Positions 8,176 through 31,630 of a DNA stretch of 32,881 bases are shown piece by piece. The position numbers were made by a program, and so were the translations under genes. The notes below the pieces were generated by a model. That model saw only the letters and a program-made list of their open reading frames with translations, did no database searches and was not told the origin of the DNA. Origin of the DNA: Pseudomonadota bacterium (GTDB lineage: Bacteria > Desulfobacterota > Desulfobacteria > Desulfobacterales > RPRI01); contig JAHIFE010000166.1 of NCBI GenBank assembly GCA_018901125.1, forward strand, positions 1-32,881, read 5' to 3'. How positions within the stretch are numbered: the first letter of the stretch is position 1; each line of letters begins with the position of its first letter.

Positions 8176-8255
8176 TTTTATATGTATAAAAACTCTTGTG
8201 TGCAGATAGAATTTGGGTTTTTATCAACGAAAATAGACTTGTAAAAAGCGTACAA

Positions 8256-8278
8256 CGAACATCGCCATTCGATGTTCG
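8256..8278. promoter_or_regulatory. Perfect 9-bp inverted repeat in the leader of the BcrC-like gene
   Basis: The arms CGAACATCG and CGATGTTCG are exact complements separated by CCATT, and lie 28 bp before the chosen start codon. No run of T follows, so a simple terminator is less likely than an operator or an RNA hairpin acting on translation. Confidence 0.5.
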
Positions 8279-8306
8279 CCATTTTCGGATTTCGATAGGT
8301 GAAAAT

Positions 8307-9434: not shown

Positions 9435-9451
9435 AATTATGGAGCGTTATA

Positions 9452-14280: not shown

Positions 14281-17200
14281 TCATGCTGCTTTAGACAGCT
14301 TTACTGCACATACTTTATACTCAGGTATCTTTGATACAGGATCAAGAGCAGCATTTGTAAGTTTGTTTGCAGCAGACTTTGCGAAATGAAACGGGATAAA
14401 AACCGTTCCATCAACAGCAGTTGTTGATATTTTTATCTTTGCTGTAATATCTCCTCTTCTTGATATAATTTTTGCCAAAGATCCGTCTTCGAAGCCGAAT
14501 TTCTTAGCATCGGAAGCTGATATTTCAACAAAATTCTCCGGCGCCCTTTCATTTATTCCATCCGATTTCATCGTCATGGTTCCGGTATGATATTGATGAA
14601 TTACACGGCCTGTTGTAAGATAAAGAGGATATTCCTGATCGGTCTGCTCTGCCGGAGGCAGATATTCAATTGCATGAAAAACACCTTTTCCTATAGGAAA
14701 TGCCTGCGTGTGCAAGATAGGCGTACCCGGATGATCTGCGCTCGGACAGGGCCAATGAATTCCGACCTGGTCTATCCGGTCATAAGTTATTCCGGCATAA
14801 GAAGGAGTTACCTGGCAAATCTCATCCATTATAGCTTCGCTGCTTTCATATGTCATCGGATATCCCATACGGTTTGCTATTTCACAGACTATTTGCCAGT
14901 CTTCTTTTGCCTGGCCCGGTGAATTAACCGCTTTTCGCACCCGTTGAACTCTGCGCTCAGTGTTTGAAAATGTACCTTCTTTTTCGGCAAAACAGGCGGA
15001 AGGAAGAACAACATTTGCAAGCTTTGCTGTCTCTGTCATGAAAATATCCTGCACAACAAGAAAATCAAGATTCTTTATACATTTTTCAGCATGATTAATA
15101 TCAGGATCAGAAATCAGCGGATTTTCTCCAACAATATAAAGCGCTCTTAAGCTTTTGTCGTGGGCTTTTGGTATCATTTCAGTTGCCTTTAATCCAGGTT
15201 TATCAGAAAGCCCTGAAACTCCCCAGGCCTTTTCCATCTTTTCTCTTAAAGCAGGGTCAATTACTTTCTGATAACCGGAAAATACATCTGGAAGTCCTCC
15301 CATATCACAGGCGCCCTGAACATTATTTTGGCCGCGCAGAGGATTTACACCTCCTCCTCTGATTCCAAGATTGCCACAAAGCATGGAAAGATTAGCCAAG
15401 GACTTCACATTATCGGTTCCAGTCGTATGCTGGGTAATACCCATACAGTAAACAATTGCTCCGGCTTTTGCTCCGGCATACAGCCTTGCTGCATCGATAA
15501 GACTTTGCTCCGGTATGCCCGTTATTGACTCAACATATTGAGGAGTATATTTTTCTACGGTCTTTTTTATATCTTCAAAACCGGTTGTACGGTTTTCCAC
15601 AAAATTTTTGTCAAAAAGTTCTTCCTTGATAATAACGTTCATCATCCCATTAATCCAGGCTACATCGGTCCCAAGATTCTGACGAAGCCAGTTTCTTGAG
15701 AATAAAGTCATATTGATGTGTCTTGGATCTACAACGATCAGTTTTGTTCCTTTAAATTTTATCGCCCTTTTAATGTAAGAGGATATTACCGGATGGTTTT
15801 CGGTAGTATTTGAGCCTGTAAGTAAAATTACATCCGCTTCCTCAAGATCACCGATAGTATTTGTCATTGCTCCGCTTCCGAACGCTGCGGCCAGACCGGC
15901 CACAGTAGATGAATGTCAGAGACGCGCACAATGATCTATATTGTTGGTTTTAAGTACCGCCCTTGTTAGTTTCTGCACCAGATAGTTTTCTTCGTTTGTA
16001 ATCCTTGCAGAAGTAAGAGCAGCCAAGGCATCAGGTCCATACTCATCTCTTATTGCACCGAAACGACGGGCCACAAGATCCAGGGCCTCTTCCCAGCTTG
16101 CTTCCTTAAAGCTGCCGTCATCCTGCTTTATCAAGGGAGTGCGTAAACGATCGGGACTGTTTATGAAATCATAGGCAAATCTTCCTTTTACGCAAAGATG
16201 TCCGAAATTCGGGGCAACTCCGGAAACGCCTTCAACATTGACAACCTTATCTCCCGAGACTCCAAGCATAATCTGGCATCCCACACCACAATAAGTACAG
16301 GTAGTCCGGATTTTTTTTAGCTTAAAAGGGCCGGGCTTGCCTTTCATCTTCTCCTGAAGAGCGCCTGTAGGGCAGTTTCCAACACACAAACCGCAGTCTA
16401 CGCATTTGTCATTTATATTTGGTGTATACTGAGGCGGACCAATTCGATCTTCATCGGGAACCTCATCTACTTTTATGGCATACTGGATCTGGTAATTATC
16501 ACATCCTACGGCACATCTTCGGCATACAACACATTTGTTTGGATCCACAGTTATGAATGGATGAGATTTTTCTATTGTATATTTCGGACTCTTCCAGAAA
16601 GTCAGTTTGTTTGAATCAACACCATAAATTGTGGCATATTTTCTAAGCAGACATTTAAAACTATCAAGGCAACCACAGGAAAGGCATCGTTGGGCCTCAG
16701 TCTGAGCCTGAGCCTCAGTAAGCGGGAGTTCCGCTTCTTCAAAACTTTTACACCTTTGTTCAACGGATAGTAGCGGGGTAGCATTACGCGGACGGCTTAA
16801 AATTCCTTCAAAATTTATCGGATCAACCTCTTTTAATTTTCCTTTTGTTATATTAAATGGCTTAGCATCCTGTATAACAACTCCATCAGTCAAGTACTGA
16901 TGCATAGACAAGGCTGCCTCACGTCCATCAGCACTGGCCTGAATCACAGTTCTTGGGCCCCTTAAAAGATCACCACCTATGAAAAGATATGGAAGACATG
17001 ATTGCAAGGTGTTTGAATCCGTCTCCGGAATTCCCTTTTTGGTAAAAGCAAGTTTATTAAGTTCGCTATCCTCTTTAAGAAAATCCACATCAGAGAACTG
17101 CCCTATGGATACAATAGCCTGATCCGCTTCAATAATTGTTTCCGAACCCTTAATAGGAACAGGACTTGGGCGACCGCTGCTGTCAGCAGCTTTCAGTTCA

Positions 17201-18408
17201 TTTTTAAGATATTCCACTCCTGAGAACTTTCCGTCTTTGGAAATAATCTTTGTAGGAGTTGCCAGAATATGAATTGTTATACCTTCTTGCTCAGCATCGT
17301 GAATCTCCTGCGGATTAGCCGGCATTTCAGCTTTGGTCCGCCGATATAGCATAATAACTTCTTTTGCGCCCATGCGAAGACAGCTGCGGGCTGCATCCAT
17401 GCCTGTATTTCCGTTACCAATTACTATAACCTTTTTTCCAACAGGCGGTGGATCTCCGGAAGCATTTCTAATAAGAAATTCAATTGCAGACATGACTCCA
17501 GGCAAATCTTCTCCTGATATTCCCAGTTTATATGAATTCCAGGCTCCTATAGCCAAATAAATTGCATCAAATCCCTCACTTTTAATTGAAGCCAGAGAAA
17601 AGTCTTTACCAAATTTTTTATTTACAATAACCTCTACGCCAAGGTCGAGAATCTCCTGTATTTCCAGATCAAGTACAGCCTTTGGAAGACGATATTCCGG
17701 TATTCCATATCTTAGCATGCCACCAAGTTTTGGCATGGCATCATAAATTGTTACGCTGTGTCCTTTAAGACGCAGATAATATGCAGCGGCAAGCCCGGAA
17801 GGTCCACCTCCTATTATAGCAACTCTTTTACCTGTATCTGCCGGTGCCGGTGGAGTTGCACTGATTCCGCGTTCAGCAGCATAGTCTGCAACATATCTCT
17901 TAAGGTCCTTAATATTAATAGCTTCCTCTACACAGGTGCGGCGGCATTCGTTTTCGCATGGATGCGGGCATACTCTTCCAAGAGTGGCGGCAAAAGGAGT
18001 CTTTTCTTTAATCAGTTTAAGTGCATCTATATATTCGCCTCTTTCAATATGAGCTACATATCCCTGAATATCCAGTTTACCGGGGCAAGTCATATGACAT
18101 GGCGCTACACAATCTCCGTAATGCTGTTCAAGAAGCAAAGAAAGAATGTTTTCCCGAAATTCCCTGATTGTTGAGGTATCAGTTTGAACTTCCATCCCCT
18201 CAGAAACCTTAAAAGAACAAGATGTCACCGGCCTTGGCTCTCCCTTGACTTCAACCACGCATATTCTGCAGGATTCTTCCGGTTTTAAAAGGGGATGATG
18301 ACAAAGAGTTGGTATAAAAATACCTTCCTGAGCAGCTGCCTGCAAAAGGGTATTTTCAGAATCCGTGGTAATAGTTCTACCGTTAATTGTAATAGACACT
18401 TTAGACAT
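14281..18408 (-). CDS. fdhA: Selenocysteine formate dehydrogenase alpha subunit fused to GltD-like FAD/NAD(P) module
   Basis: The reading frame is 1375 residues with TGA at 15916-15918 decoded as Sec831, in the family context DHCARL-U-HSSTVAGL. Order of parts: N-terminal [2Fe-2S] domain (C36, C47, C50, C64); GltD/NfnB-like region with Cys-rich linker (C100, C104, C108; C147, C151, C155, C159), FAD motif GGGPSG at 200 and NAD(P) motif GNGNTG at 331; two ferredoxin clusters (C626-C636, C669-C679); the Mo/W-bisPGD domain with its [4Fe-4S] site (C704, C707, C711, C739). It would oxidise formate to CO2 (or the reverse) and pass electrons to NAD(P) and/or ferredoxin. No signal peptide, so cytoplasmic. 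GGAG lies 6 bases before the ATG. Without Sec insertion the product would end as an 830-residue protein. A second relic of the same gene family lies upstream. Confidence 0.92.
15885..15905 (-). promoter_or_regulatory. SECIS hairpin directing selenocysteine insertion
   Basis: Ten bases after the TGA the mRNA can form an 8-bp stem (CTGTGGCC with GGCCGCAG, one G-U pair) closed by the loop GGTCT. This matches E. coli fdhF, where the GGUC loop is bound by SelB. Stem, loop sequence and distance all agree. Confidence 0.88.
15916..15918 (-). other. Selenocysteine codon (in-frame TGA) of fdhA
   Basis: TGA follows DHCARL and precedes HSSTVAGL, the exact place of the Mo/W-ligating Sec or Cys in formate dehydrogenases. 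The frame continues unbroken for 544 more codons. Confidence 0.93.
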
Positions 18409-19083: not shown

Positions 19084-19269
19084 TTATACCTCAGTTACCT
19101 TAATCGCAAGAAATTCGCAAACCTGAACACAGCTTTCACAGCCCAGACAATCATCCGGTCTCACGGGTGAGGCCTTACCATTATTTAGTTGCAAAACATC
19201 TACCGGGCAGACCTCTATACATTCCTCATCCCCTACGCATTTATCCGGGTCCACTTCAACTTTAAACAT
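19084..19269 (-). CDS. Small ferredoxin with an Asp-ligand variant cluster
   Basis: A 61-residue soluble ferredoxin. The second motif is regular: C41-x2-C44-x2-C47-x3-C51, with Glu rather than Pro after the last Cys. In the first motif, C11-x2-D14-x2-C17-x3-C21-Pro, the second Cys is Asp. In Pyrococcus furiosus and Desulfovibrio africanus ferredoxin III, an Asp at this place goes with a labile or interconverting [3Fe-4S]/[4Fe-4S] cluster. The frame is open to a GTG at 19308, but the ATG at 19269 gives the normal ferredoxin N-terminus (MFKVEVDPDKC). It follows the NuoEF-like gene in an apparent operon and is the best candidate carrier between that module, formate dehydrogenase and the Nuo complex. 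Confidence 0.85.
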   Translation of the reverse strand: MFKVEVDPDKCVGDEECIEVCPVDVLQLNNGKASPVRPDDCLGCESCVQVCEFLAIKVTEV

Positions 19270-19339
19270 ATCTTTTCTCTTTTCCGTATCAAACTTTGTT
19301 ACCACCACAATATTAAAGGTGGCATATCTTATTTATTTT

Positions 19340-20068
19340 TTAAAATTTACAAACTCCCAACCGGCATTGCTTCTCTTTTATATGCGTTTCAAATTCTTCC
19401 TTAAAATTTGATATGATAGCCAAAATTATTTTTGATACTTTTCCGGCAAAAGCACAATATGCTGCCTGATCAGTAAGACGAATCAAAGTTTCCATCTGCA
19501 TTAATGCATTACCAGGTGACTTACCACTGGCAACTCCTGAAATCAGTTCTATAAGACGCTGAATTCCCAAACGACATGGAGTGCATTTACCGCAAGACTC
19601 ATTAGCATGAAACTTAATAAGATATTCTGCAATCTGAACCATACAAACAGTAGGCTCCATGGTCATAATACATCCGCTTACTTTATCCCAGATTAAATCG
19701 CCACGTATGGTCTGCAGTGAATTTACACATAATATAGGAAATAATATTTTTTTGTTCCCTATTGTTTCCTTTATAATTAAAGATATATGAACATCCTTGA
19801 CTTTATGATAAAAAAGGCCAAGGTGTGGCAGGCTAACATAAGGACCATTATTACATTTGCCGCTACAACCGCATTTTGCAGGTTCTATAGCCACTGGAAT
19901 ATTTTGACGTTGGGATTCTGCAATCAGTCCCTTATAAATACTTTCGCCACCACAAGTATTCGAGGTTTTCCCAACTCCACATACCGTTATCCTTGGCAAA
20001 TTACCTGCAATACCAAGCATATCTTGAGCCGGAGAGGTTTGAATACAATTTGAAGTTACTGCCGACAT
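19340..20068 (-). CDS. NuoE/NuoF (HydB/HndC)-type protein lacking the NADH/FMN core
   Basis: A 242-residue protein built from the two ends of a fused NuoEF/HydB protein. Residues ~25-110 are a thioredoxin-like [2Fe-2S] domain (C30, C39, C66/C68, C72; KCNNGPYVSL). Residues ~130-240 are the NuoF C-terminus: MEPTVCMVQIAEYL, the [4Fe-4S] motif ESCGKCTPC (C159, C162, C165) with its fourth ligand C205, and the tail ending CRLGVCKF. The ~330 residues that bind NADH and FMN are missing, without any stop in the frame. It is 14 bp after nuoN with a good ACGGAGT before the ATG. It could be an electron-wire protein left after an in-frame deletion, or an expressed relic. It cannot oxidise NADH by the normal mechanism. 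Confidence 0.82.
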   Translation of the reverse strand: MSAVTSNCIQTSPAQDMLGIAGNLPRITVCGVGKTSNTCGGESIYKGLIAESQRQNIPVAIEPAKCGCSGKCNNGPYVSLPHLGLFYHKVKDVHISLIIKETIGNKKILFPILCVNSLQTIRGDLIWDKVSGCIMTMEPTVCMVQIAEYLIKFHANESCGKCTPCRLGIQRLIELISGVASGKSPGNALMQMETLIRLTDQAAYCAFAGKVSKIILAIISNFKEEFETHIKEKQCRLGVCKF

Positions 20069-20082
20069 TTATATTTACTCCG

Positions 20083-21501
20083 TTACAATTTTATCGTTTC
20101 ACAGGCTGTACGAGCAAATTCTATAAACTTGGCCGGTAAAACACCTAATAGGATAATAGCTATAATTAAGCCGTAATTCAATAATCTGCTTGAAAAGCTT
20201 ACCGACACTGCTGGTAAACCATCTGGGTCCTGTCCATATGCAGAACGAACAATATTAAGATAATAATAAATGGAAATAGCCGTATTAACAGCAGCTATTA
20301 TAATCAATGCAAGATGCCCTTCTTTTAAAGCCGCAATAAAAAGGAAAAACTTTCCTGTAAATCCAGCTGTAGGAGGAATCCCAGCCAATCCAAAAAAACC
20401 AACCGCTAGAGTAAATGCCAATAAAGGCGATCGTTTATAAAGACCAGAAATGTCACTTATAGTAACATTCTCACCTTCCTTTGATACAGTTGATATAACA
20501 AGAAAGCATGCAAGGTTCATAAGCATATAAGCAGTTATATGGAACATAACAGCAGAATAACCATCAACCTTAAGAGTTAAAATACCAAGCAGGATATAAC
20601 CTGCATGGGCAATGCTGGAATAAGCAAGAAGCCTTTTTAAGTCCTTTTGAACCAGTGCCGCAATGTTGCCAAAAGTCATTGAAACAGCAGCAATAACAAC
20701 TAAAACCTGAACAAGGTCAACAGATCCGGGAGGGGCTAAATTTACAATTCTTATAAGTAAAGCGGCTGCTGCAATCTTTGGCATAGTTGCAATAAATGAA
20801 ACAGTTTCATTAGCAGTACCTTCATATATATCAGGAGTCCAGAAATGAAATGGAACAACTGAAAGTTTATAGAAAAATCCGCAAAGAATTAATAGAATAC
20901 CAACTATTCCTACCGGCTGCCCTATAAGTTCAGGCATTTTATTCATAATTTCCGAAAGATAGGTAGACTGAGTGAGTCCAAAAATGTAACTCATCCCAAA
21001 AAGCATAATACCAGTGGCTGCTGCACCAAATATAATATATTTTACAGCTGCTTCAATTCTTCCATGACTTATATCTTTACTTATTGGTATAAGAATATAA
21101 AGCGAATATGATGACAACTCCATTGATATAAGAATTGTTATCAGTTCCACACTGCTTACCATAAGCATCAAACCCAAGGCACTTACACAAAGAAACATAA
21201 AAAACTCTGGCTGAAGCCTCTCTTCTATGCTCTTGTTCTTTCTGCAAAGTATTACTATCAAGAAGAGCCCAACACTGAGAAGAAGTTTAAATGTCTGTGA
21301 AAAAAGATCAACCCTGTATGCCTGGTAGAAGAGATCTCCCGTCATATTTAAGGTATAAAGATTAATGAATACTCCGATGCCGGTAAGAAATACAGCTATA
21401 CCCTGATTTAATTGGGCAGATGATTTCCATAAAGATTGGCAGAAAAAAGCCAGTGCCATCAAGAGCAGATAGGTTTCCGGCAGAAATAATACAACATCCA
21501 T
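20083..21501 (-). CDS. nuoN: Complex I membrane subunit NuoN
   Basis: A 472-residue polytopic membrane protein, one of the antiporter-like proton channels of the complex I membrane arm, normally next to NuoK. Visible elements are the TM5 Glu (ISMELSSYSLY), TM7 Lys (FFYKLSVVPFHFWTPDIYEG), TM8 Lys (TMPKIAAAALL) and TM12 Lys (GIPPTAGFTGKFF), all needed for proton transfer in known NuoN. The last of the canonical nuo genes in the cluster; 135 bp separate it from nuoM and only 14 bp from the following NuoEF-like gene. GAGGAAT lies upstream of the ATG. Confidence 0.95.
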   Translation of the reverse strand: MDVVLFLPETYLLLMALAFFCQSLWKSSAQLNQGIAVFLTGIGVFINLYTLNMTGDLFYQAYRVDLFSQTFKLLLSVGLFLIVILCRKNKSIEERLQPEFFMFLCVSALGLMLMVSSVELITILISMELSSYSLYILIPISKDISHGRIEAAVKYIIFGAAATGIMLFGMSYIFGLTQSTYLSEIMNKMPELIGQPVGIVGILLILCGFFYKLSVVPFHFWTPDIYEGTANETVSFIATMPKIAAAALLIRIVNLAPPGSVDLVQVLVVIAAVSMTFGNIAALVQKDLKRLLAYSSIAHAGYILLGILTLKVDGYSAVMFHITAYMLMNLACFLVISTVSKEGENVTISDISGLYKRSPLLAFTLAVGFFGLAGIPPTAGFTGKFFLFIAALKEGHLALIIIAAVNTAISIYYYLNIVRSAYGQDPDGLPAVSVSFSSRLLNYGLIIAIILLGVLPAKFIEFARTACETIKL

Positions 21502-21636
21502 TATTATTTATTCCTCAGAATCATTGAAATTGATAACTTAATAAGTCTCATTTAATTTATATTTTTCTTTATATGAGTTTATTATAATATATGTTAAAAT
21601 TAAAAAACTATCGGACAACATCTATAATTCATAATA

Positions 21637-23139
21637 CTATTTCACTAAAGCAACAGCACCGGCTGTTTGCAACTGATCCATAAGATGGCCGACGCTTGCA
21701 TGCATAACATCTAAAAAGGGCCCGGGAGCAAAACCAATCCATAATACAAATATTACAAGAGGAGTTAAATAAATAACCTCTCTTATATTCATGTCTGGAA
21801 AATTGATTTTTCCTTTTTTACCCCAGGCTATTCTCTGGAGTAAATGCAGCATATAGGCTGCAGCCAGAACAACTCCCGGTATGCTCAAAGCACCAATCAA
21901 TTTATGATCCGTAAACACTCCCAACAAAACCAGCAACTCTCCTACAAAACTGTTTGTACCTGGAAACGCCATTGAAGAAAGGCAGAAAAAACCAAAAAAA
22001 CCAATATAAATCGGCATAATCTTAGCTATACCGGAGTTATCTGCTATAAGGCGGCTGTGACTTCTCTCATAAATTATACCAACACATAAAAAGAGAGCGC
22101 CGGTAGTTATTCCATGATTTATCATCTGCAATATTGCCCCTTCGAGACCATATTTATTAAACAGAAATATCCCGAGGGTAACAAATCCCATATGCGCAAC
22201 ACTTGAATAAGCGATAAGTTTTTTCATATCACTTTGCCCAAGAGCAACATAACCTCCGTATACAATGGAACAAATAGAAATAATAAGAATATATGGAGCA
22301 AAATACATACTAGCATTCGGAGTTATTGGGAGACAAAATCTCAAAAATCCGTAAGTTCCCATTTTCAGTAATACACTTGCAAGCAAAACACTGCCTGCTG
22401 TAGGAGCTTGAACGTGTGCTGCCGGCAACCATGTATGAAATGGAGCCATTGGAACTTTAATGGCAAACGCAATCCCAAAAGCAAGAAATACCCAGAACTG
22501 AAAATTAAATGAAAATAAATGTGTCTGAGTCATTAATTCAGGAATGCAGAAAGTTCCTACCTTAAGATACAGGGCAATCATTGCAACTAAAAGGAAAACA
22601 CTACCCACCATCGTATAAATAAAAAACTTAATTGAAGCATAAACTTTTTCAGGACCACCCCAGACAGCAATCAGCAAATACATTGGGATCAGCATTGCTT
22701 CCCAGAAAATATAAAAAAGCACAAAATCAAGTGATGAAAAAATTCCCACGCATGCGCTTCCCATCAATAGAAGGCAAAAATGAAACTCTTTTACCCGCTT
22801 ATCTATATATTTCCACGATGCCAAAACACATATTGGGATAAGAAACGTACTCAAAAGCACTAGAAGCAAACTAATGCCATCTATTCCAAGAGTGTAATTA
22901 ATATTAAATGCCGGTATCCAGGCAGTATGCTCTCCAAATTGATATTTTGTAGTACTTGGATCAAAATTAAAATAAAGAGGCAATGAAAGCACAAAAACTG
23001 CAAGACTTACTAATAAAGTCCATATTCTTGCAACAGTCTCATTCCGGATCATAAAGAGCACAATGGCTCCGGCCAGGGGCGCAAATATTAAGACGCTCAA
23101 AATGGGATAATTAAGCTGATTGGGAATTAAAAAATCCAT
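21637..23139 (-). CDS. nuoM: Complex I membrane subunit NuoM
   Basis: A 500-residue, ~14-TM proton-pumping subunit. Key residues are present: TM5 Glu (FYIFWEAMLIPMYL), TM7 Lys (AFAIKVPMAPFHTWLP), TM8 Lys (ASVLLKMGTYGFL) and the NuoM-typical TM12 Glu (GTNSFVGELLVLLG), which separates it from NuoL and NuoN. The length is normal. It follows the second NuoL-like gene after a 102-bp gap with a small GC-rich hairpin and precedes nuoN. AGGAAA precedes the ATG. Confidence 0.95.
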   Translation of the reverse strand: MDFLIPNQLNYPILSVLIFAPLAGAIVLFMIRNETVARIWTLLVSLAVFVLSLPLYFNFDPSTTKYQFGEHTAWIPAFNINYTLGIDGISLLLVLLSTFLIPICVLASWKYIDKRVKEFHFCLLLMGSACVGIFSSLDFVLFYIFWEAMLIPMYLLIAVWGGPEKVYASIKFFIYTMVGSVFLLVAMIALYLKVGTFCIPELMTQTHLFSFNFQFWVFLAFGIAFAIKVPMAPFHTWLPAAHVQAPTAGSVLLASVLLKMGTYGFLRFCLPITPNASMYFAPYILIISICSIVYGGYVALGQSDMKKLIAYSSVAHMGFVTLGIFLFNKYGLEGAILQMINHGITTGALFLCVGIIYERSHSRLIADNSGIAKIMPIYIGFFGFFCLSSMAFPGTNSFVGELLVLLGVFTDHKLIGALSIPGVVLAAAYMLHLLQRIAWGKKGKINFPDMNIREVIYLTPLVIFVLWIGFAPGPFLDVMHASVGHLMDQLQTAGAVALVK

Positions 23140-23185
23140 TTATAATTATTTTCCTGAAGTAATTAAACCTGAAGGCTTCGTAATC

Positions 23186-23198
23186 CCGCCCGAGGCGG
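23186..23198. other. Short GC-rich hairpin between nuoL-like and nuoM genes
   Basis: CCGCC-CGA-GGCGG is a perfect 5-bp hairpin standing out in an AT-rich 102-bp spacer. It lacks a T-run, so it is more likely an mRNA processing or stability element than a terminator. Low certainty. Confidence 0.25.
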
Positions 23199-23241
23199 TT
23201 ATCATTTTAACTTCAAATAAATTCATCCGGTTTAGTGCTAA

Positions 23242-25011
23242 TTAAAAAAACCAGTGAACACCGACAATAACAAAAATTATTAAAATAGCCATGGCAAGAT
23301 AGTTTTGGAGATTTCCGGTTTGAACCCTTCGTGCTTTATCTCCTATCCATCTGGTTCCATATGCCACATTATCAACAACACCATCTATAGCCCATTTATC
23401 AAACCATGCAAAAAATCTTGCTACAGACATCATTAATATCTTAATACCGAAACTTTTATATACATTTCCCCAGGCAACATCAATCGACTGAATTATCTTT
23501 TGATCAAACCACATAAAAGCATTTAATATATTGCGATAGAACCAGTCAAAATCCAGATTGATTTTTCCTTCGGGCTGCAATCTTTTAAGAAGCAAGAAAA
23601 ACACAAGTCCTGTAAAAAGCAAAATCTGCATTGTTTCCGATAGATGAGGCATATTGTAAGGATGGAATTCAAGTGCTGCTTCTTTATATGGTAGCAATAC
23701 ATATAAAGCTTTCGGATATACACCAATAATAAAGCATAAAAATGCAGCTATTCCCATAGCCCAGAGCATATTTTTTGGTGGTTCTTTCGGCTTAAGCCCA
23801 CAATCCTTTCCGAAAAAAACAAAATAAGGCAGCTTTAAACCTACAGAAAGGAATGTACCAACAGCTGCCAATAACAAAAGCAACATCAAATATTGATGTC
23901 CTCCTTCAGCTGCACCTGCTATTACCATTGATTTGCTTACAAACCCGCTGAAAAGAGGAAATCCGGAAATTGAAATACCACCTACGATATAAAATATCAT
24001 TGTTAAAGGCATATACTTATAAAGACCGCCTAATTTATTCAATTTAGATGTTCCCGTCATCATTAATACAGACCCGGCACCCATAAAAAGCAGCGCCTTA
24101 TAAAGAATATGTGCATATGCATGTGCGCAGGCACCGTTTATTGCAAGTGCGCCTCCTATGCCAATTCCCGCAACCATGTATCCAACCTGGCTTATAATAT
24201 GGTATGCAAGAATACGCCGCATATCATTTTCGATGGTAGCGTAACATACTCCATATATAGTCATCACAGTACCCATAATCGCCAGAACATAAAATTCAGG
24301 AAATGCACGTGCTAATACATATACTGCTGTTTTGGTAGTAAAAGCACACATAAAAACAGCGCCTGTAACTGTAGCCTCAGGATATGCATCTGGAAGCCAG
24401 GCATGCAGTGGAAATACAGCAGCATTCAAAGCAAACCCGGCAAGAATCAGATATTCAGCAACTCCCGCATTTGCCGGTAATAGAGTTTCAAATGCTATAC
24501 TTCCTGTACTTTGATAATGAAGAAAAATCCCGCCAAGCAACAAAAGACCGCCAAAAATATGCATAAGAAGATATCGTTGACCAGCTTTTATTGAGGCAGG
24601 TTCACGTCTAAACCAAATTAAAAATGTAGATGCCAGAGCCATCATTTCCCAGAAGATGAAAACAGTAAGATAATCTCCTGCAAAGACAACCCCCAACGAA
24701 CCGCCAACATAAAAATAAGATGCTATATGCTGTGCATCTTCATCAACATGGATGCCAAAAAGCACTCCTATGAATGACATCAAAGTAAATACATGAGCAA
24801 AAACAATACTCAAGCTATCCACACGTCCTAAAACTATATCAAATTCCAAATATTTAAAGTGAGCATAAACCCCGGTCTTCATGGTAAGTACTGTGTAAAA
24901 AGCAATAAGAGGTAATACAAGAAGATAGATTTTTTTAAACTTACCCGGAATCAGCGGAATAAGTAATGCTCCAAAAATAAAGAATATCGCCGGATGAATG
25001 AAGTTATTCAT
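23242..25011 (-). CDS. NuoL/MrpD-like proton-conducting subunit with C-terminal extension
   Basis: A 589-residue polytopic membrane protein of the proton_antipo_M family. TM5 Glu (VFIFWEMMALAS), TM8 Lys (CAFTTKTAVYVLAR) and TM12 Lys (FPLFSGFVSKSM) are present, but the TM7 Lys seen in NuoL, NuoM, NuoN and MrpD is replaced by Asn (GFALNAAVFPLHAWLPDAYPEA). After ~TM14 comes a ~110-residue tail with a last TM (AMAILIIFVIVGVHWFF), loosely like the NuoL lateral-helix region. The start overlaps the preceding small membrane protein gene by 8 bp, with GAGG inside that gene as ribosome binding site. It is the likely NuoL counterpart or an extra pump module. Confidence 0.85.
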   Translation of the reverse strand: MNNFIHPAIFFIFGALLIPLIPGKFKKIYLLVLPLIAFYTVLTMKTGVYAHFKYLEFDIVLGRVDSLSIVFAHVFTLMSFIGVLFGIHVDEDAQHIASYFYVGGSLGVVFAGDYLTVFIFWEMMALASTFLIWFRREPASIKAGQRYLLMHIFGGLLLLGGIFLHYQSTGSIAFETLLPANAGVAEYLILAGFALNAAVFPLHAWLPDAYPEATVTGAVFMCAFTTKTAVYVLARAFPEFYVLAIMGTVMTIYGVCYATIENDMRRILAYHIISQVGYMVAGIGIGGALAINGACAHAYAHILYKALLFMGAGSVLMMTGTSKLNKLGGLYKYMPLTMIFYIVGGISISGFPLFSGFVSKSMVIAGAAEGGHQYLMLLLLLAAVGTFLSVGLKLPYFVFFGKDCGLKPKEPPKNMLWAMGIAAFLCFIIGVYPKALYVLLPYKEAALEFHPYNMPHLSETMQILLFTGLVFFLLLKRLQPEGKINLDFDWFYRNILNAFMWFDQKIIQSIDVAWGNVYKSFGIKILMMSVARFFAWFDKWAIDGVVDNVAYGTRWIGDKARRVQTGNLQNYLAMAILIIFVIVGVHWFF

Positions 25012-25300
25012 AGTAATCCTCTTTTCTCATAAGAACCTTGTGCGATAAACCCTTCATAATCCGGATCAGCAGAAAACAGCCGACAAGACCAAACGCAGAC
25101 CAGAAGCAAGGAATCGTTTCTGCCCAAATAAAAATAGTTTCCGCTAGAGAGAGATGCTCTCCATGATGCACTGCATGGTGCGAAGCAAATACCTTAACAT
25201 AAACATCGAACAATAGAGACACTGCAATCAGTAACCACATAACTTTTTTTACTGTTTTCAGATTATCTCTTAGATATTGTATTGGTTCAGCAAAGTTCAT
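25004..25300 (-). CDS. Small two-TM membrane protein between antiporter-like nuo genes
   Basis: A 98-residue protein of no family I can name. It has an N-terminal charged, probably amphipathic stretch, a first TM (~21-38: VMWLLIAVSLLFDVYVKV), a His-rich loop (ASHHAVHHGEH), a second TM (~60-80: PCFWSAFGLVGCFLLIRI) and a basic-acidic tail. Its start overlaps the stop of the upstream antiporter gene (ATGA) and its end overlaps the start of the next, so the three are translationally coupled. The position suggests an accessory subunit holding the two antiporter-like proteins together, comparable in role to small Mrp subunits. This is inference from gene order. Confidence 0.75.
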   Translation of the reverse strand: MNFAEPIQYLRDNLKTVKKVMWLLIAVSLLFDVYVKVFASHHAVHHGEHLSLAETIFIWAETIPCFWSAFGLVGCFLLIRIMKGLSHKVLMRKEDYYE

Positions 25301-26823
25301 GATGTAAAAACCGCCTTTAATGTATTCATTAAATAATCCGGATCTACTGACTTGACGATATTCATGAAATAATCCGGATAAAGGCCCATAAGTACTGAAG
25401 CAGTGGCAGTAAGAAGCAGAGGAATAACCATATAAACCGGTGCTTCATGTAATCCACTGTGTTTAGCTCCCGGATCACCTTCCCTGGGTTTACCAAATAT
25501 CGTTTTTATAATTACTGGGAAAAAATAGCCTGTGTTTAAGATTGTGCTGGCAAGCAAGACAACTAAAAGAATTTTATTGTTTGCCTGCATAGTTCCAATT
25601 GCCAGATACCATTTAGTAACAAACCCGCAAACAAGAGGAACTCCTATCATGCTCATTGCTGCTATACTGAATGCTGCTATGGTAAAAGGCATCTGTTTTG
25701 CAATTCCACCCATTTCGCTTATTTTTTTGGTATGAAGAGAAACATAAATAGAACCGGCACACATAAAGAGTGTTATTTTTGAAAAAGCATGGTTTGCAAT
25801 ATGAATCAGCCCTCCGGTAACACCACTTGGCGTAAGAAGTGCAACACCAAGTATAACATATGAAAGCTGACTTACTGTTGAATATGCCAACCTTGCTTTC
25901 AGGTCGTCTTTAGTAAGTGCTATTACTGAAGCCATCAAAATTGTGAATGCAGCCACATAAGCGGTTGGAATTCCCAAATTCAATGTATTCATTAGTTCAA
26001 CACCAAAAACAGAAAGCATAACCCTGCTCGTACAAAAAACTCCTGCTTTAACAACAGCCACTGCATGAAGAAGAGCGCTTACAGGAGTAGGAGCAACCAT
26101 CGCCGATGGCAACCAGTTGTGAAATGGCATCATAGCGGCTTTTGCAAACCCGGCAAGATAAAGAACATAAGTTATCTTTACCAAAAGTGGGTTTGCGGTA
26201 GCAGGAAAAATACCATGTAAAATACCTGATGGTGCAAAATCCAGAGTACCAGCCAAAATATAGGTCATAATTATTGCAGGCAGAAAAAATGATTTTGCGG
26301 TACCTGTAAGATAGACCATGTATTTCCTGGCACCCTCATATGATTCTTCATCCTGATGATGGGCAACAAGCGGATATGTAAAGATGGTGATAAGCTCATA
26401 AAACAGGTACAAAGTAAAAAGGTTCCCTGAAAAAGCAACACCTATTGCACCGAAAATTGCCATTGCAAAACAAAAATAATACCGGGTCTGAGCATGTTCT
26501 TTTAAGGAACGCATATAACCGATATTATAAAATGTTACAAGAATCCACAGAAATGATGCTATTATTCCGAAAAGAAGCCCGAGAGCATCAACTCTGAATT
26601 TAAGCGAAATCCCCGGCAAAATAACAAAAGGGGTAAATTCCAGGGCTTTACCCGACAGTATAACGGGCATCATGGAAAGAATAGTAAGAAAAGTAGCCAC
26701 TGCGCCCAGAATAGACCAAGTCTCTCTAAGATTTGGTTTTTTTGGTGTGGCCATAATCAGCAATGAAGCAACCAAAGCGATCAGGACAGCAAGAACCGGC
26801 TTTATAGTGATAATGGTTTCCAT
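25297..26823 (-). CDS. MrpD/NuoM-like proton-conducting subunit (extra antiporter module)
   Basis: A 508-residue, ~14-TM protein of the proton_antipo_M family, close in length and motifs to MrpD and NuoM. TM5 Glu (LYLFYELITIFTYPL), TM7 Lys (AGFAKAAMMPFHNWLPSAM), TM8 Lys (AVAVVKAGVF) and TM12 Lys (GVPLVCGFVTKWYL) are all kept, so it should be an active ion channel. It lies between nuoK and the small membrane protein gene, a place where a standard nuo operon has nuoL. With the 589-residue protein, NuoM and NuoN it gives four antiporter-like subunits. Confidence 0.87.
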   Translation of the reverse strand: METIITIKPVLAVLIALVASLLIMATPKKPNLRETWSILGAVATFLTILSMMPVILSGKALEFTPFVILPGISLKFRVDALGLLFGIIASFLWILVTFYNIGYMRSLKEHAQTRYYFCFAMAIFGAIGVAFSGNLFTLYLFYELITIFTYPLVAHHQDEESYEGARKYMVYLTGTAKSFFLPAIIMTYILAGTLDFAPSGILHGIFPATANPLLVKITYVLYLAGFAKAAMMPFHNWLPSAMVAPTPVSALLHAVAVVKAGVFCTSRVMLSVFGVELMNTLNLGIPTAYVAAFTILMASVIALTKDDLKARLAYSTVSQLSYVILGVALLTPSGVTGGLIHIANHAFSKITLFMCAGSIYVSLHTKKISEMGGIAKQMPFTIAAFSIAAMSMIGVPLVCGFVTKWYLAIGTMQANNKILLVVLLASTILNTGYFFPVIIKTIFGKPREGDPGAKHSGLHEAPVYMVIPLLLTATASVLMGLYPDYFMNIVKSVDPDYLMNTLKAVFTS

Positions 26824-26837
26824 TTGGCTTTAAGTAT

Positions 26838-27146
26838 CTAACCTTTCAGTTCGCTGACACTATCAGCATTAATCGTTTTAAAGTTACGATAGACGGTAAT
26901 AATAATACTGAGAGCTACTGCAGCTTCAGCAGCAGCAACACCCATAATAAACAAAGCAAATATCTGACCTGTTGCAGGCTCTTTTGACAAAAACATATTA
27001 AAAGCCATGAAATTTATGGCAGCGCCGTTTAGAATCAGTTCGGTAGAGATCAGCATACCTATAAGACTGTTATGCTGTAATATCCCGAATATTCCGATAC
27101 AAAACAACAAGGCGCCCAGAATTAAATATGTTGATAGACATTCCAT
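26838..27146 (-). CDS. nuoK: Complex I membrane subunit NuoK
   Basis: A 102-residue, three-TM protein related to MrpC. The two membrane-embedded glutamates that link the quinone site to the pump modules are present (LISTELILNGAAINF and GVAAAEAAVALSIII). AAAGGAATTAACCC precedes the ATG; the gene starts 3 bp after nuoJ ends. Normal length. Confidence 0.95.
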   Translation of the reverse strand: MECLSTYLILGALLFCIGIFGILQHNSLIGMLISTELILNGAAINFMAFNMFLSKEPATGQIFALFIMGVAAAEAAVALSIIITVYRNFKTINADSVSELKG

Positions 27147-27149
27147 GGG

Positions 27150-27686
27150 TTAATTCCTTTTCCGGACAAAACTAGCGACCATAATAGAACCTATAATTGC
27201 AATGGCCAAAAGCAGAGAAATCAATTCGAAAACAAGAAAATAACGGGTCAGCAGTTGATGACCAATAGTTTCTATGGACCAGTCACGAGCTATATCTGCT
27301 ATAGGTTCAAACTTAAGACTCATAATCATCTTCACCATGACTATGAAAACAACAAAACTAACAGCTGTTGCAGTTATAACTTTGAGTTTATTTCTTTTAG
27401 GCAGTTCTTTCTCAAGCGGAGGTGAAAGCATTATGGCAAATATATAAGTCATGCATATAGCGCCGACATATATAAGCAACTGCATCATTGCTACAAATTG
27501 ACTGCCTAAATAAAGATAAACTCCTGTTATCCCGAACATGGCAAGAGCAAGACCCAAAATATTATGTACAATTTTTTTTGGTATTACAGCTAATAATGCA
27601 CCTGCCAGCGTGAAAACAATCATCAGCACGAAAGCAGCCTGCGCCACCATCAGCGGCGGTATCAGATCTGAAATTGTGGTAGTCAT
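27150..27686 (-). CDS. nuoJ: Complex I membrane subunit NuoJ
   Basis: A 178-residue protein with five TM helices. The region LLIYVGAICMTYIFAIML corresponds to the conserved TM3 of NuoJ, whose pi-bulge rotates during turnover in known structures (seen: similarity; mechanism: family knowledge). The start overlaps the nuoI stop (ATGA), with AGAGGAAAG inside nuoI. Normal length. Confidence 0.93.
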   Translation of the reverse strand: MTTTISDLIPPLMVAQAAFVLMIVFTLAGALLAVIPKKIVHNILGLALAMFGITGVYLYLGSQFVAMMQLLIYVGAICMTYIFAIMLSPPLEKELPKRNKLKVITATAVSFVVFIVMVKMIMSLKFEPIADIARDWSIETIGHQLLTRYFLVFELISLLLAIAIIGSIMVASFVRKRN

Positions 27687-28141
27687 TTTCTTTCCTCTAG
27701 CCTTTGCATAATATCCATTACTCCGTCCCAGCGTGAATAAAAGGCCAATTCATACTCATCGGAAAATTTAAGAGTCTTTTCAGGACAAACATCCACACAT
27801 AAACCGCAAAGGCTGCATTTTGTAAAATCAATAAAGTATTGTTTACCGTATTTTCTATCACCGGCCTTTGTCTTTTCTCCCTGAACCTTAATAACATGCG
27901 AAGGACAGGTACGCGCGCATAATCCGCATGCAACGCAATGATGGCTCTTTGTGTCATCAAATATAATGGCTTCGATATGTCCCCTGAAATGTGGAGTCAT
28001 TATCGGCTTTTGACGAGGATACTGAACCGTAACTATAGGCTTGAACATATGTTTTAAAGTTATGCCCATACCTATAATGAGGCTCTTTGATCCTGTAAAT
28101 ATCTCCTTAACGTACTGTTTGAAGCCATACGAGGTATTCAT
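27683..28141 (-). CDS. nuoI: Complex I Fe-S subunit NuoI
   Basis: A 152-residue peripheral subunit carrying two [4Fe-4S] clusters (N6a/N6b): C69-x2-C72-x2-C75-x3-C79 (CVACGLCARTCP) and C109-x2-C112-x2-C115-x3-C119 (CSLCGLCVDVCP). In a complex without NuoG, this subunit is the expected docking point for an external ferredoxin, as proposed for Fpo-like and cyanobacterial complexes. Its ATG overlaps the nuoH stop by one base (TAATG). Confidence 0.95.
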   Translation of the reverse strand: MNTSYGFKQYVKEIFTGSKSLIIGMGITLKHMFKPIVTVQYPRQKPIMTPHFRGHIEAIIFDDTKSHHCVACGLCARTCPSHVIKVQGEKTKAGDRKYGKQYFIDFTKCSLCGLCVDVCPEKTLKFSDEYELAFYSRWDGVMDIMQRLEERK

Positions 28142-29139
28142 TAAAGCACCTTAATAACAATTGCCGTTACCAAAAGGTTTAAGAGAGAAATCGGAATAAG
28201 TACTTTCCACGCAAAATTCATAAGCTGATCAAAACGAAGCCTTGGAAAAGTCCATCTTATCCAGACGGTAACGAAAACTAGAAAGTAAGCCTTTAGCACG
28301 AACCATACAATTCCGGAGAAAAAAGGGCCATGCCAACCGCCAAAAAACAGGACTACGGCCATAGATGAGGCTATAAACATGGCTGTATATTCCGCCATAA
28401 AAAACAGGGCGTCTCTCATTCCGGTATATTCGGTATGAAATCCCGAAACCAGCTCGGATTCGGCCTCCACAAGGTCAAAAGGAGCCCGGTTCGTTTCCGC
28501 CGTTGAACAGATAATAAAAATTATAGCGGCAACCGGTTGCAGAATAAAATTCCAAACTGTGGATTGATCCGAAACAATTTGACTCATCTTAAAAGAATTA
28601 CTCATGATAATAACCGACATTGTAGAAAGCAGAAGCGGTATTTCATAAGCTATGCTCTGTGCAACCGCCCGAACGGCTCCAATCAGAGAATATTTATTAT
28701 TTGAAGCCCATCCGCCCATCATTATAGATAGACCTGAAATACTGGAAAAAGCAAAGATCAGCAAAATACCTACATTTAGCTCTCTGATCTGCATAACCGG
28801 GCTGAAAGGAATTACAACAAAACAAACAATAGCCGGAATTACAACAATGCAGGGAGCCATCCAGAAAAGAGGTTTGTCCGCAAGATCTGGCGTTATCATT
28901 TCCTTGCACATCAATTTTACAGCATCGATAAGACTCTGTAGAATTCCGTGCGGGCCTACTTCCATAGGTCCGGGGCGAAGTTGTATATGCCCTGCAACCT
29001 TACGTTCAACCCATACAAGAAAAGCGGAATTTAAAGGTACAAATATTAAAACCAGCAGGAGACCTACAACGCCCACCAGCAAATCCGGGCCTAAAAATCC
29101 ATAAATATCTTTAATAATTGGAAGTTGTGTCATATTCAC
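28141..29139 (-). CDS. nuoH: Complex I membrane subunit NuoH
   Basis: A 332-residue, ~8-TM subunit that forms the quinone cavity with NuoB and NuoD. Conserved signatures are [19 protein letters not shown] near the N-terminus and [19 protein letters not shown] with the following [12 protein letters not shown], which include the acidic E-channel loop. The start is GTG at 29139 overlapping the nuoD stop by 4 bp; an ATG two codons later is an alternative. GGAG lies upstream. Normal length. Confidence 0.95.
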
Positions 29140-30263
29140 CGGTCAATCTCCGGAACCGTTACATCGATACTGCCAAAGATAGCGACAAGATCGGCAACAA
29201 AATGTCCAGGAATAATCTTACTCATAACAAATAAATTGGAAAAAGAGGGTGCGCGCACTTTAAGTCTATACGGAATACGCGTACCATCACTGACTATATA
29301 ATAACCCACAGCACCGCGGGCACTCTCAAAAGAATGATAACAGTCCCCGGCAGGTGGTGTAATAAAACACGGAACATCGGCACGAATAGGGCCATCGGGC
29401 AGATTGTTCATAGCCTGCTCAATAATTCTTAAGCTTTGCTCAATTTCGGCTAACCGTACCAAATATCGGGCCATACAATCTCCCTCTTCTTTGGTCGGAA
29501 TCTCAAAATTGAAATCTTCATACGAAGAATAAGGTTCGCTTTTGCGCACATCATAGTTTACGCCTGAACCGCGTAATGTCGGTCCGGTAACCCCGTAATC
29601 CAGCGCTACATCTTTACTGATAACCCCGACTCCGACGGTACGTTTAATAAAAATTATATTTCCGGTTATCAAATCATTGTAGAGTTTGAATCGCTCTCTC
29701 ATTCGATCTATAAACCGTCTGGCACTATCACAAAATGTCTGATCTATATCAACACGAACCCCACCAAAGCGGCTATAATTATAGGTAAGGCGCGACCCGG
29801 TAATCGTTTCCAGAAGATCAAGTATAATTTCACGATCATCCCAGCCGTAAAGAAATGGCGTATATGCACCAATACCCATAACAAAATCCATGACACCAAG
29901 CAAATGGCTGGCTACACGATTAAGTTCGGAAGTAATAACCCTGATATATCGCGCTCTCTTTGGCACTTCAATACCGCAAAGCTTTTCAACCGCTTCACAA
30001 TATCCTGTATTAAAAATCATGCCGGAAAGGTAATCCATCCGGGCAGAATTTGGATAAAACTGCTCATAAATGCGGTTCTCGGCCATTTTCTCATGGCCCC
30101 GATGCGTATAACCTATGAGCATTTCAGCTTTGACCACCACTTCTCCGTCAAGGGTAAGCAAAAAGTGCAACACCCCGTGAGTACTCGGATGCTGAGGGCC
30201 AAGATTGAGCTGATATAGCCGCTCATTTATATTTATGTCGTCTATAGTTTTCATGGTCAACAT
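29136..30263 (-). CDS. nuoD: Complex I subunit NuoD (49-kDa type)
   Basis: A 375-residue peripheral subunit lining the quinone site, related to [NiFe]-hydrogenase large subunits but without the metal-ligand cysteines. [17 protein letters not shown] holds the His that contacts the quinone head; [12 protein letters not shown] and the C-terminal [12 protein letters not shown] are typical. NuoC and NuoD are separate genes here, unlike the fused NuoCD of E. coli. The start overlaps the end of nuoC; the ATG at 30263 or the one three codons later could be used, as neither has a strong ribosome binding site. Confidence 0.95.
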
Positions 30264-30751
30264 AGCATATCATCTATTTCTCCGGTTATAGTAGTCTTAC
30301 CGAAGTTCTTTAATAATGGAAAATAATCTGCATCATCGGGGTTTAGTATACGTCTTAAATCCGGATGCTCCTTAAATTGGATACCGAAAAAGTCATAAAC
30401 CTCCCGTTCCAGCCAAATGGCTTCTGAATAAACTGCCGAAACGGTAAACGGCGGTTCATCCTTTGGCACGCGTATCCGCACCATTACACGGATATTATCC
30501 TGATTATAATTAAAATAGAGGTAAACGATCTCGAACGAATCTATAAAATCAACCGCTGTAACGGTTTCTAAATTGAATCGCCTGCTCCTCATTTCCTTAG
30601 CTACCCTGCGCATACCGACCTTGCTTGAACTGAACTCCAGGTGATAGCCTGTAAGGACATAATCACTCTGGCTGATCTTTGCTTCAGGCACGGACTTCGC
30701 CAGATTATTTTTTAGCTCTTCCAGCAGCTTTTTCTGCCCTTCGGTTAGCAT
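30257..30751 (-). CDS. nuoC: Complex I subunit NuoC (30-kDa type)
   Basis: A 164-residue hydrophilic subunit that braces NuoD and NuoI. The family signature is [22 protein letters not shown] near residue 115. The gene overlaps the 3' end of nuoB by 47 bp in another frame; AAAGGAAC within nuoB supports the ATG at 30751. No cofactor is expected. Confidence 0.93.
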
Positions 30752-31256
30752 CTATTGTTCCTTTACTAATCAAGGTTTGTAATTTAAGAAGTCCCTGAAT
30801 AAAAGCTTCCGGACGTGGTGGACATCCGGGAATATAAATATCAACGGGAATAATCTTGTCTGTTCCGTTAACTATTGCGTACTGTCCATCATAAGCAAAC
30901 GGCCCTCCGGAAATAGCACAATTGCCCATTGCCATTACCCATTTGGGTCCCGGCATCTGTTCATACAGAGTTTTTATGGTAGGAACTAGTTTCTTTGATA
31001 TTGTTCCTGCAACAACCATAACATCCGACTGGCGTGGGCTTGCTCTGAAAATGGTCCCGAACCTATCAAGATCGAATCGTGCCATACCTGCGGCCATCAT
31101 CTCTATAGCACAGCATGCAATCCCAAAAGTAATGGGCCAGAGAGAATTTACCCTTGCCAGATTTAATAAATCCTGAACAGGAGCAAATCCCAGTACTGCC
31201 GGTGCTCCATCCATCCCAATAGTAGGTTCACAATATGGACTTTTCTTTATCTCCAT
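30705..31256 (-). CDS. nuoB: Complex I Fe-S subunit NuoB (cluster N2)
   Basis: A 183-residue subunit binding the terminal [4Fe-4S] cluster N2, which hands electrons to quinone. All four ligands are seen: the adjacent pair C48-C49 ([11 protein letters not shown]), C113 (MGNCAISGG) and C145 ([10 protein letters not shown]). [17 protein letters not shown] is also characteristic. The start overlaps nuoA by 10 bp with AAAGGAG inside nuoA. The last ~15 residues are Arg/Lys/Ala-rich. Confidence 0.96.
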
Positions 31257-31630
31257 TCAAAAACTCCTTTGCGCCAGGCATAAACAATTGCCAGAGAAAT
31301 GATAAAAAGGAAGATAAAGAGTTCGACCAGTTCGATATAAGCGGTTCCTTTCTGATAAGTCAGGAGCACCGGAAAGAGGTAAAGTACGTCCACATCAAAA
31401 GCTAAAAAAATCAGGGCGAAAAGATAATAGGACGCACCGAATTGAATCCAGGCGGTTCTGATTGGAGCCACACCGCTTTCATAGGTTTCTCCTCTTCTTT
31501 TTCCACGATAGTTAGGACCTATCAAGGAATTTAACACAACCATCACAACTGATAGTCCAATGGCGACTAAGAAGAAAATAAATACAAAGAAAAAATCATA
31601 TAGGCCGGCTTGTAGCATCTGAGAAAACAC
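31247..31630 (-). CDS. nuoA: Complex I membrane subunit NuoA
   Basis: A 127-residue, three-TM subunit, first gene of the nuo operon. The conserved loop [12 protein letters not shown] and the second helix [12 protein letters not shown] match the family. The start is taken as GTG at 31630 because GGGAG lies nine bases upstream; an ATG four codons later has no ribosome binding site. A candidate promoter lies 62 bp upstream. Confidence 0.93.

What the first reader, a model, noticed from the sequence alone, without database searches (positions are those of the whole stretch)
19340..20068. NuoEF/HydB-type protein with the entire NADH/FMN core removed but both Fe-S ends intact
Seen: a thioredoxin-like [2Fe-2S] domain is joined in frame to the NuoF C-terminal [4Fe-4S] domain; about 330 middle residues are absent with no stop. 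All four [4Fe-4S] ligands survive. Either this is a recent in-frame deletion in a dying gene, or a new short electron-transfer subunit between ferredoxin/formate dehydrogenase and complex I.
Basis: partly seen in the sequence, partly recalled or inferred. Interest (0 to 1): 0.7.

Follow-up and report, generated by a model that had tools for sequence, protein, structure and literature searches.

The report
Flavin-free NuoF-like complex I subunit
Some anaerobic bacteria carry, at the end of their complex I operon, a conserved small iron-sulfur protein that looks like the usual NADH-oxidising subunit with its entire NADH/flavin part cut out, and it is a good candidate for the unknown electron entry point of complex I versions that do not use NADH.

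Summary
Window 19340-20068, minus strand, is an intact 242-aa ORF: a thioredoxin-like [2Fe-2S] domain joined to the NuoF/HydB [4Fe-4S] domain, with about 327 residues (FMN/NADH and SLBB region) replaced by about 12. It is neither a dying gene nor an assembly error. Full-length orthologues of the same shape occur in 5 other genomes of the genus (54-78% identity; dN/dS mostly 0.10-0.22) and in 21 further genomes of seven other families of the phylum that I read individually. Seven core cysteines are invariant in 27 of 27, and four cysteines are always present in the thioredoxin-like domain. In 20 of 27 the unusual Cys/His B2 site of bifurcating HydB is also kept. In 25 of 27 the gene lies immediately after nuoN in an operon without nuoEFG; within the genus it is present exactly where nuoN is (6 of 10 genomes). 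The redox partner encoded downstream varies: Sec-formate dehydrogenase, catalytically dead NuoG-like protein, GltD-fused protein, or none. Best reading: a flavin-free Fe-S input/relay subunit of an NADH-less complex I, fed by ferredoxin and/or formate dehydrogenase. Cofactors, binding and electron flow are inferred. New variant of the NuoF/BfuB kind.

The parts
19340..20068 (-). Short flavin-free NuoF/HydB-like protein, 242 aa: Trx-like [2Fe-2S] domain (aa ~23-118; C30, C39, C68, C72), junction (aa 119-130), NADH_4Fe-4S helical domain (aa 131-242; C159, C162, C165, C205 plus B2-type site C142, H229, C235, C240)
19084..19308 (-). 2[4Fe-4S] ferredoxin, 74 aa from the listed GTG start; neighbour of the short gene in the four genus genomes where the contig reaches it; candidate stand-in for the missing HydB C-terminal ferredoxin domain (B3/B4)
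20083..21501 (-). NuoN; ends 14 bases before the short gene starts
21637..23139 (-). NuoM
   Evidence: named from sequence
23242..25011 (-). NuoL-like antiporter subunit (589 aa, Proton_antipo_M)
25004..25300 (-). 98-aa small protein, probably membrane-bound, no Pfam family; conserved in f1 and f80 operons
25297..26823 (-). Additional antiporter-like subunit (508 aa, Proton_antipo_M)
26838..27146 (-). NuoK
   Evidence: named from sequence
27150..27686 (-). NuoJ
   Evidence: named from sequence
27683..28141 (-). NuoI (2[4Fe-4S], N6a/N6b)
   Evidence: named from sequence
28141..29139 (-). NuoH
   Evidence: named from sequence
29136..30263 (-). NuoD
   Evidence: named from sequence
30257..30751 (-). 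NuoC
   Evidence: named from sequence
30705..31256 (-). NuoB
   Evidence: named from sequence
31247..31630 (-). NuoA, first gene of the nuo operon
   Evidence: named from sequence
14281..18408 (-). Probable selenocysteine formate dehydrogenase, ~1375 aa read through one in-frame TGA (...NNIDHCARL-U-HSSTV...): N-terminal NuoG-like [2Fe-2S], GltD-like FAD/NAD(P) domain, 4Fe-4S domains, molybdopterin domain; possible partner of the short protein, set off by a 675-base gap

Best explanation
The gene encodes a functional Fe-S-only subunit of an NADH-less complex I. It is related to HydB/BfuB-type NuoF with the FMN/NADH and SLBB region, about 327 residues, left out. It keeps ligands for the N3-equivalent [4Fe-4S] cluster (B1), the B2 [2Fe-2S] site and the N-terminal thioredoxin-like [2Fe-2S] cluster (B5). 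[quoted passage not shown] With no flavin it cannot take a hydride from NADH and cannot bifurcate. Shown: architecture, conserved ligands, selection, synteny and co-occurrence with nuoN. Inferred: cluster content, docking, the donor, and the direction of flow (possibly reversible).
For: The short form is full length and intact in 6 genomes of the genus, in family f30 and in families f80, f86, f88, f130, f137, f153. In the 27 aligned, C30, C68, C72, C159, C162, C165, C205 are 27/27; C39 is 22/27 and the other five have a cysteine at nearby spacing; C142/H229/C235/C240 is complete in 20/27. These last map without gaps onto NiFe-HydB B2 ligands C438, H525, C531, C536. dN/dS is 0.10-0.22 overall; for five closer pairs the junction gives 0.03-0.13. 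Short and full-length C-domains are split by one branch (94/98, 95% of bootstrap trees). AF2 on 27 sequences: pLDDT 84.8, pTM 0.80; best folds are HydB/NfnB-type chains at about 2.3 A over ~110 residues. Immediately after nuoN in 25/27, one gene away in 1. In the genus, present in the 6 genomes with NuoN, absent in the 4 without. It is the only NuoF-like gene in this nuo cluster, and G000 has one NuoN hit.
Against: No biochemistry, transcript or proteome data; cluster occupancy is unproven. The ferredoxin neighbour is established only in the genus. In the window a 675-base AT-rich gap with a promoter-like site precedes FDH, so FDH may be a separate unit. Where no NuoG-like gene follows (three f80 and three f153 genomes, and f130), how the N3-type cluster connects to NuoI is unclear; NuoG/FDH-type homologues exist elsewhere in those genomes. 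The f88 copy is not next to nuo genes at all.
Confidence: 0.6

Rival explanations
1. It is a subunit of the neighbouring formate dehydrogenase (a formate:ferredoxin enzyme), and its position next to nuo is incidental.
For: FDH follows in the window and in G009, G005 and G001. The FDH N-terminus carries a NuoG-like [2Fe-2S] domain with which an N3 domain could pair. The f88 copy lies beside formate-THF ligase.
Against: In f137 and G655 the downstream partner is NuoG-like without the catalytic Cys/Sec motif, and in f80 (three genomes), f130 and three f153 genomes none follows, yet nuoN adjacency persists. In the window FDH is set off by a 675-base gap.
Confidence: 0.15
2. It is a structural or assembly subunit that caps the peripheral arm; the clusters stabilise the fold and are not on an electron path.
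For: Off-path Fe-S clusters are known in complex I relatives (B5 and A5 are described as dead ends). Downstream partners vary while the protein stays. The B2 site is lost in two f153 members and incomplete in f86 and f88.
Against: Seven cysteines are invariant across proteins as little as 24-30% identical to the window's, and a fourth Trx-domain cysteine is always present; the retained N3 cluster is an on-path cluster in complex I and HydB.
Confidence: 0.15
3. Recent in-frame deletion in a decaying gene.
For: The missing block is a clean excision relative to HydB.
Against: Same form in 27 genomes of eight families, no stops, dN/dS mostly 0.10-0.22 including the junction.
Confidence: 0.01
4. 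Assembly error joining two gene fragments.
For: The window comes from a 241-contig draft genome.
Against: The same junction appears in independent assemblies, including L005/G009 at 78% identity and single-contig genome G745.
Confidence: 0.01

Closest known systems
BfuB / HydB of electron-bifurcating enzymes (HydABC, NiFe-HydABCSL, NfnABC; Bfu family of Schut et al. 2022, PMC9304861)
   Same: Trx-like [2Fe-2S] N-domain (B5), [4Fe-4S] helical domain (B1), B2-type ligands, and the C-terminal KxCxxGxC motif; best structural matches.
   Different: FMN/NADH Rossmann and SLBB region absent; C-terminal ferredoxin domain (B3/B4) absent or a separate gene; no BfuC/NuoE homologue recognised next to it; cannot bifurcate or use NADH.
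Nuo-Bfu (14-subunit complex I with BfuABC replacing NuoEFG, e.g. Geobacter; PMC9304861)
   Same: A HydB-type protein is encoded with a complex I operon in anaerobes.
   Different: Nuo-Bfu has full BfuABC in the middle of the operon; here only a flavin-free B-type protein lies after nuoN.
[quoted passage not shown] Desulfitobacterium hafniense; PMC11238625)
   Same: nuoABCDHIJKLMN without nuoEFG; electron donor unknown.
   Different: A dedicated Fe-S subunit is encoded at the operon end; extra antiporter-like subunit and 98-aa protein in this genus and f80.
Epsilonproteobacterial complex I (Campylobacter/Helicobacter)
   Same: NADH-independent complex I lacking a normal NADH module, thought to use ferredoxin or flavodoxin (mentioned).
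   Different: From general knowledge, the small proteins in the NuoE/NuoF positions there are unrelated to NuoF; not compared here.

Membership tests
NuoF (TIGR01959 / NADH-quinone oxidoreductase subunit F) | FMN-binding domain PF01512 and full-length model score | tested here: not met
   No PF01512; TIGR01959 66 bits against a 558.65-bit cut-off, matching only model positions 311-410
NuoF (TIGR01959 / NADH-quinone oxidoreductase subunit F) | C-terminal NADH_4Fe-4S domain with four Cys ligands (N3) | tested here: met
   PF10589 70.7 bits; four Cys 27/27
BfuB/HydB (Bfu family) | FMN/NADH core (IPR011538) and SLBB domain | tested here: not met
   HydB ~122-448 absent; definition from PMC9304861
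BfuB/HydB (Bfu family) | B1, B2 and B5 cluster ligand sets | tested here: met
   In the window protein and 20/27 overall; B2 incomplete in 7/27. Ligands only; cluster occupancy not testable here
BfuB/HydB (Bfu family) | C-terminal 2[4Fe-4S] domain (B3/B4) | tested here: not met
   Protein ends after the KxCxxGxC motif; a separate 74-aa ferredoxin gene follows
BfuB/HydB (Bfu family) | NADH/ferredoxin bifurcation activity | not testable with these tools
   Needs biochemistry; loss of flavin makes it implausible
[quoted passage not shown]
   (plus an additional antiporter-like subunit)
Subunit of complex I | Gene linked to nuo operon and co-occurring with it | tested here: met
   25/27 immediately after nuoN; 6/6 present and 4/4 absent within the genus
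Subunit of complex I | Physical presence in the purified complex | not testable with these tools
   No proteomics available
Pseudogene | Relaxed selection or disrupted frame | tested here: not met
   dN/dS mostly 0.10-0.22, no stops

The most novel reading that the evidence does not exclude
A widespread class of NADH-less complex I in this phylum uses a flavin-excised HydB/NuoF as a conserved Fe-S socket onto which different donors (ferredoxin, Sec-formate dehydrogenase, GltD-type NAD(P)H flavoprotein, dead NuoG) are plugged, giving at least part of the answer to what feeds the 11-subunit complex I.
Probability: 0.45. Interest if true: 0.8.

Novelty: new variant of a known kind. Interest (0 to 1): 0.62.

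Why it matters
The electron donor of 11-subunit complex I is unresolved: a search for a donor protein common to all bacteria holding it failed, and it was proposed to be a docking platform for several donors (Willemin et al. 2024, PMC11238625, citing Moparthi and Hagerhall 2011). This protein is a concrete, operon-encoded candidate, found in eight families, for the point where donors attach. It gives a natural test case for which parts of NuoF/HydB are needed for electron relay as opposed to NADH oxidation or bifurcation. It also warns annotators: NCBIfam has no model for it (only partial NuoF matches), so it could be read as a NuoF fragment and the organism be credited with an NADH dehydrogenase it may not have.

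Tried and rejected
Dying gene and assembly error: rejected. FDH subunit as the primary identity: demoted because the link to nuoN persists without FDH. Bifurcating subunit: rejected for want of the FMN/NADH core. The first AF2 job with 6 sequences was poor (pLDDT 66) and was repeated with 27. Cluster-to-cluster distances could not be computed because no coordinates are released. A bacterial SECIS element after the FDH TGA was looked for by folding; a local stem-loop forms but is no better than shuffles (z -0.98 to +0.20), and Rfam found nothing in the window, so Sec rests on the motif, the TGA shared by three genomes of the genus and selB in the genome. Papers on sulfate reducers, syntrophic partners, Pelobacter and Desulfotignum give no description of the short form in the passages searched.

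Full report
OBSERVATION. The ORF at 19340..20068 is on the minus strand: 242 aa, ATG start, no internal stop; the plus strand of the same stretch is full of stops. Pfam sees only the NADH_4Fe-4S domain (PF10589, residues 146-229, E 9.5e-20) and no FMN-binding domain. Against solved structures the best sequence matches are HydB-type subunits of bifurcating hydrogenases, in two separate pieces: a weak N-terminal one (residues 26-103) and a strong C-terminal one (131-241). Profile comparison with HydB-type proteins of the same genome and order makes both firm: residues 23-118 align to HydB 25-121 (E 2.4e-22) and 131-242 to HydB 449-561 (E 2.5e-41), while an unrelated pairing (N-domain against C-domain) scores nothing. 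About 327 residues, the FMN/NADH and SLBB region, are missing and about 12 residues span the junction.

NOT DECAY, NOT AN ARTEFACT. Five other genomes of the genus carry the same full-length short form at 54-78% identity; one is the MAG filed as Desulfonema limicola FI88_41_9 (L005 = G009). Pairwise dN/dS is 0.10-0.22 (one further pair has saturated dS); for five closer pairs the junction itself gives 0.03-0.13, while the first 23 residues are looser at 0.23-0.70 (Nei-Gojobori, dS high for the more distant pairs, so approximate). Further full-length short forms occur in family f30 and in f80, f86, f88, f130, f137 and f153 of the phylum: 24 of 395 phylum genomes by my count of the match list. 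I read 27 individually, from eight families. On a 116-column tree of the C-domain the 27 short forms and 44 full-length HydB-type proteins are separated by one branch (support 94/98, found in 95% of bootstrap trees), consistent with one origin of the short form. The alignment is short, several branches are long and the root is unknown, so this is not proof, nor does it show which form came first.

LIGANDS. In the 27-sequence alignment C30, C68, C72 (thioredoxin-like domain) and C159, C162, C165, C205 ([4Fe-4S], N3/B1) are invariant. C39 aligns in 22, and the other five have a cysteine a few residues nearer (C-x4-C or C-x5-C), so all 27 have four cysteines in the thioredoxin-like domain. A preprint cited there assigned zinc at that site in the T. 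maritima enzyme, so its content is disputed. This set is complete in 20 of 27, lost in two f153 members and incomplete in f86 and f88. AF2 on the 27-row alignment gives pLDDT 84.8, pTM 0.80: a thioredoxin-like domain, a two-strand junction and a helical bundle; Foldseek ranks HydB/NfnB-type chains first, about 2.3 A over roughly 110 residues. Coordinates are not released, so I could not measure distances.

GENOMIC SETTING. In the window the order on the minus strand is nuoA-B-C-D-H-I-J-K, an extra 508-aa antiporter-like subunit, a 98-aa protein, NuoL-like, nuoM, nuoN, then 14 bases later the short gene, 31 bases later a 74-aa 2[4Fe-4S] ferredoxin, and after a 675-base AT-rich gap a formate dehydrogenase. 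There is no nuoE, nuoF or nuoG in the cluster. In 25 of 27 cases the short gene is immediately after nuoN; in G527 one gene (a full NuoF-GltD fusion) intervenes; in f88 it is elsewhere, beside formate-THF ligase. Within the genus NuoN is found in exactly the six genomes with the short gene and in none of the four without, although some of these drafts are incomplete. So the association is with complex I.

PARTNERS VARY. In the window, G005 and G001 the FDH has an in-frame TGA at NN(I/V)DHCARL-U-HSSTV and the window's genome has selB, so it is probably a selenoprotein; no convincing SECIS fold was found. The window FDH carries a NuoG-like [2Fe-2S] domain and a GltD-like FAD/NAD(P) domain; the G001 FDH is at the same place but lacks the GltD part. 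In f137 and G655 the next gene is NuoG-like with the [2Fe-2S] and 4Fe-4S domains but without the catalytic Cys/Sec motif, and in f86 a GltD domain is fused to such a pseudo-pterin protein (G556 read in full). In three f80 genomes, three f153 genomes and f130 no such gene follows, though relatives exist elsewhere in those genomes.

MECHANISM. Removing the FMN/NADH core leaves a protein that cannot accept a hydride but retains up to three one-electron sites. The N3-type cluster is the on-path contact to NuoG in complex I and to HydA in HydABC, so the natural reading is an Fe-S relay that carries electrons between ferredoxin and/or a formate dehydrogenase and the complex I chain. The ferredoxin encoded next door in this genus could take the place of HydB's missing C-terminal ferredoxin domain. 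Which donor, whether the flow is towards or away from menaquinone, and how the relay reaches NuoI where no NuoG-like gene is present are not shown. I give 0.6 to the relay in complex I, 0.15 to an FDH subunit, 0.15 to a structural cap; a dying gene and an assembly error are excluded in practice.

RELATION TO KNOWN SYSTEMS. Schut et al. (PMC9304861) define the Bfu family by a BfuBC core whose BfuB contains the FMN domain and five clusters, and describe Nuo-Bfu, a 14-subunit complex I with complete BfuABC in mid-operon. The present protein fails that definition (no FMN core, no B3/B4) while keeping the B1, B2 and B5 ligand sets; the non-bifurcating homologues they list lack B2-B5. Willemin et al. 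(PMC11238625) state that the donor of 11-subunit complex I is unknown and that no common donor protein was found. NCBIfam has no model for the short form, and no paper found in the library searched here describes it; most subscription journals and preprints were not covered. I therefore file it as a new variant of a known kind. Most Nuo subunits in the window were named from sequence; only the antiporter-like, ferredoxin and FDH proteins were run through Pfam here.

Noticed in passing
window 20083-26823: The nuo operon has four antiporter-like subunits (508, 589, 500, 472 aa) plus a 98-aa protein without a Pfam family; the same set is in f80 but not in f137, f153 or f86. Could raise ion-pumping stoichiometry, or be a Mrp-like addition.
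   Followed up: partly
window 14281-18408: Formate dehydrogenase read through an in-frame TGA (probable selenocysteine) with a GltD-like FAD/NAD(P) domain inserted after a NuoG-like [2Fe-2S] domain; the G001 orthologue at the same site lacks the GltD domain.
   Followed up: partly
L096 1120-4974 (G527): One operon carries both a full-length NuoF fused to GltD (1038 aa) and the short flavin-free form, side by side after nuoN.
   Followed up: no
L099 7137-8795, L104 6244-8226, L107 4551-6095: f153 short forms carry long C-terminal extensions (ORFs of 515-661 aa), Ala/Glu/Pro-rich and Lys-rich at the end in L099 and L104; L099 and L104 have also lost the B2-site ligands.
   Followed up: no
L112 7134-7838 (f88): A diverged short form lies next to formate-tetrahydrofolate ligase and an AICARFT-like gene with a CODH/prismane-family gene nearby, away from any nuo gene: possibly a different use of the same module.
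   Followed up: partly
f1 and f80 loci (L093-L096): f1 and f80 short forms intermingle on the tree and share the four-antiporter operon, mostly at 65-85% identity, suggesting transfer of the whole operon between families.
   Followed up: no
window 123-1334 and 2245-3006: Two transposase genes (DDE with DUF4372; IS110-type) at the left end of the window.
   Followed up: partly
window 8196-10780: Two adjacent 2-hydroxyglutaryl-CoA dehydratase D-component (HGD-D) family genes.
   Followed up: partly
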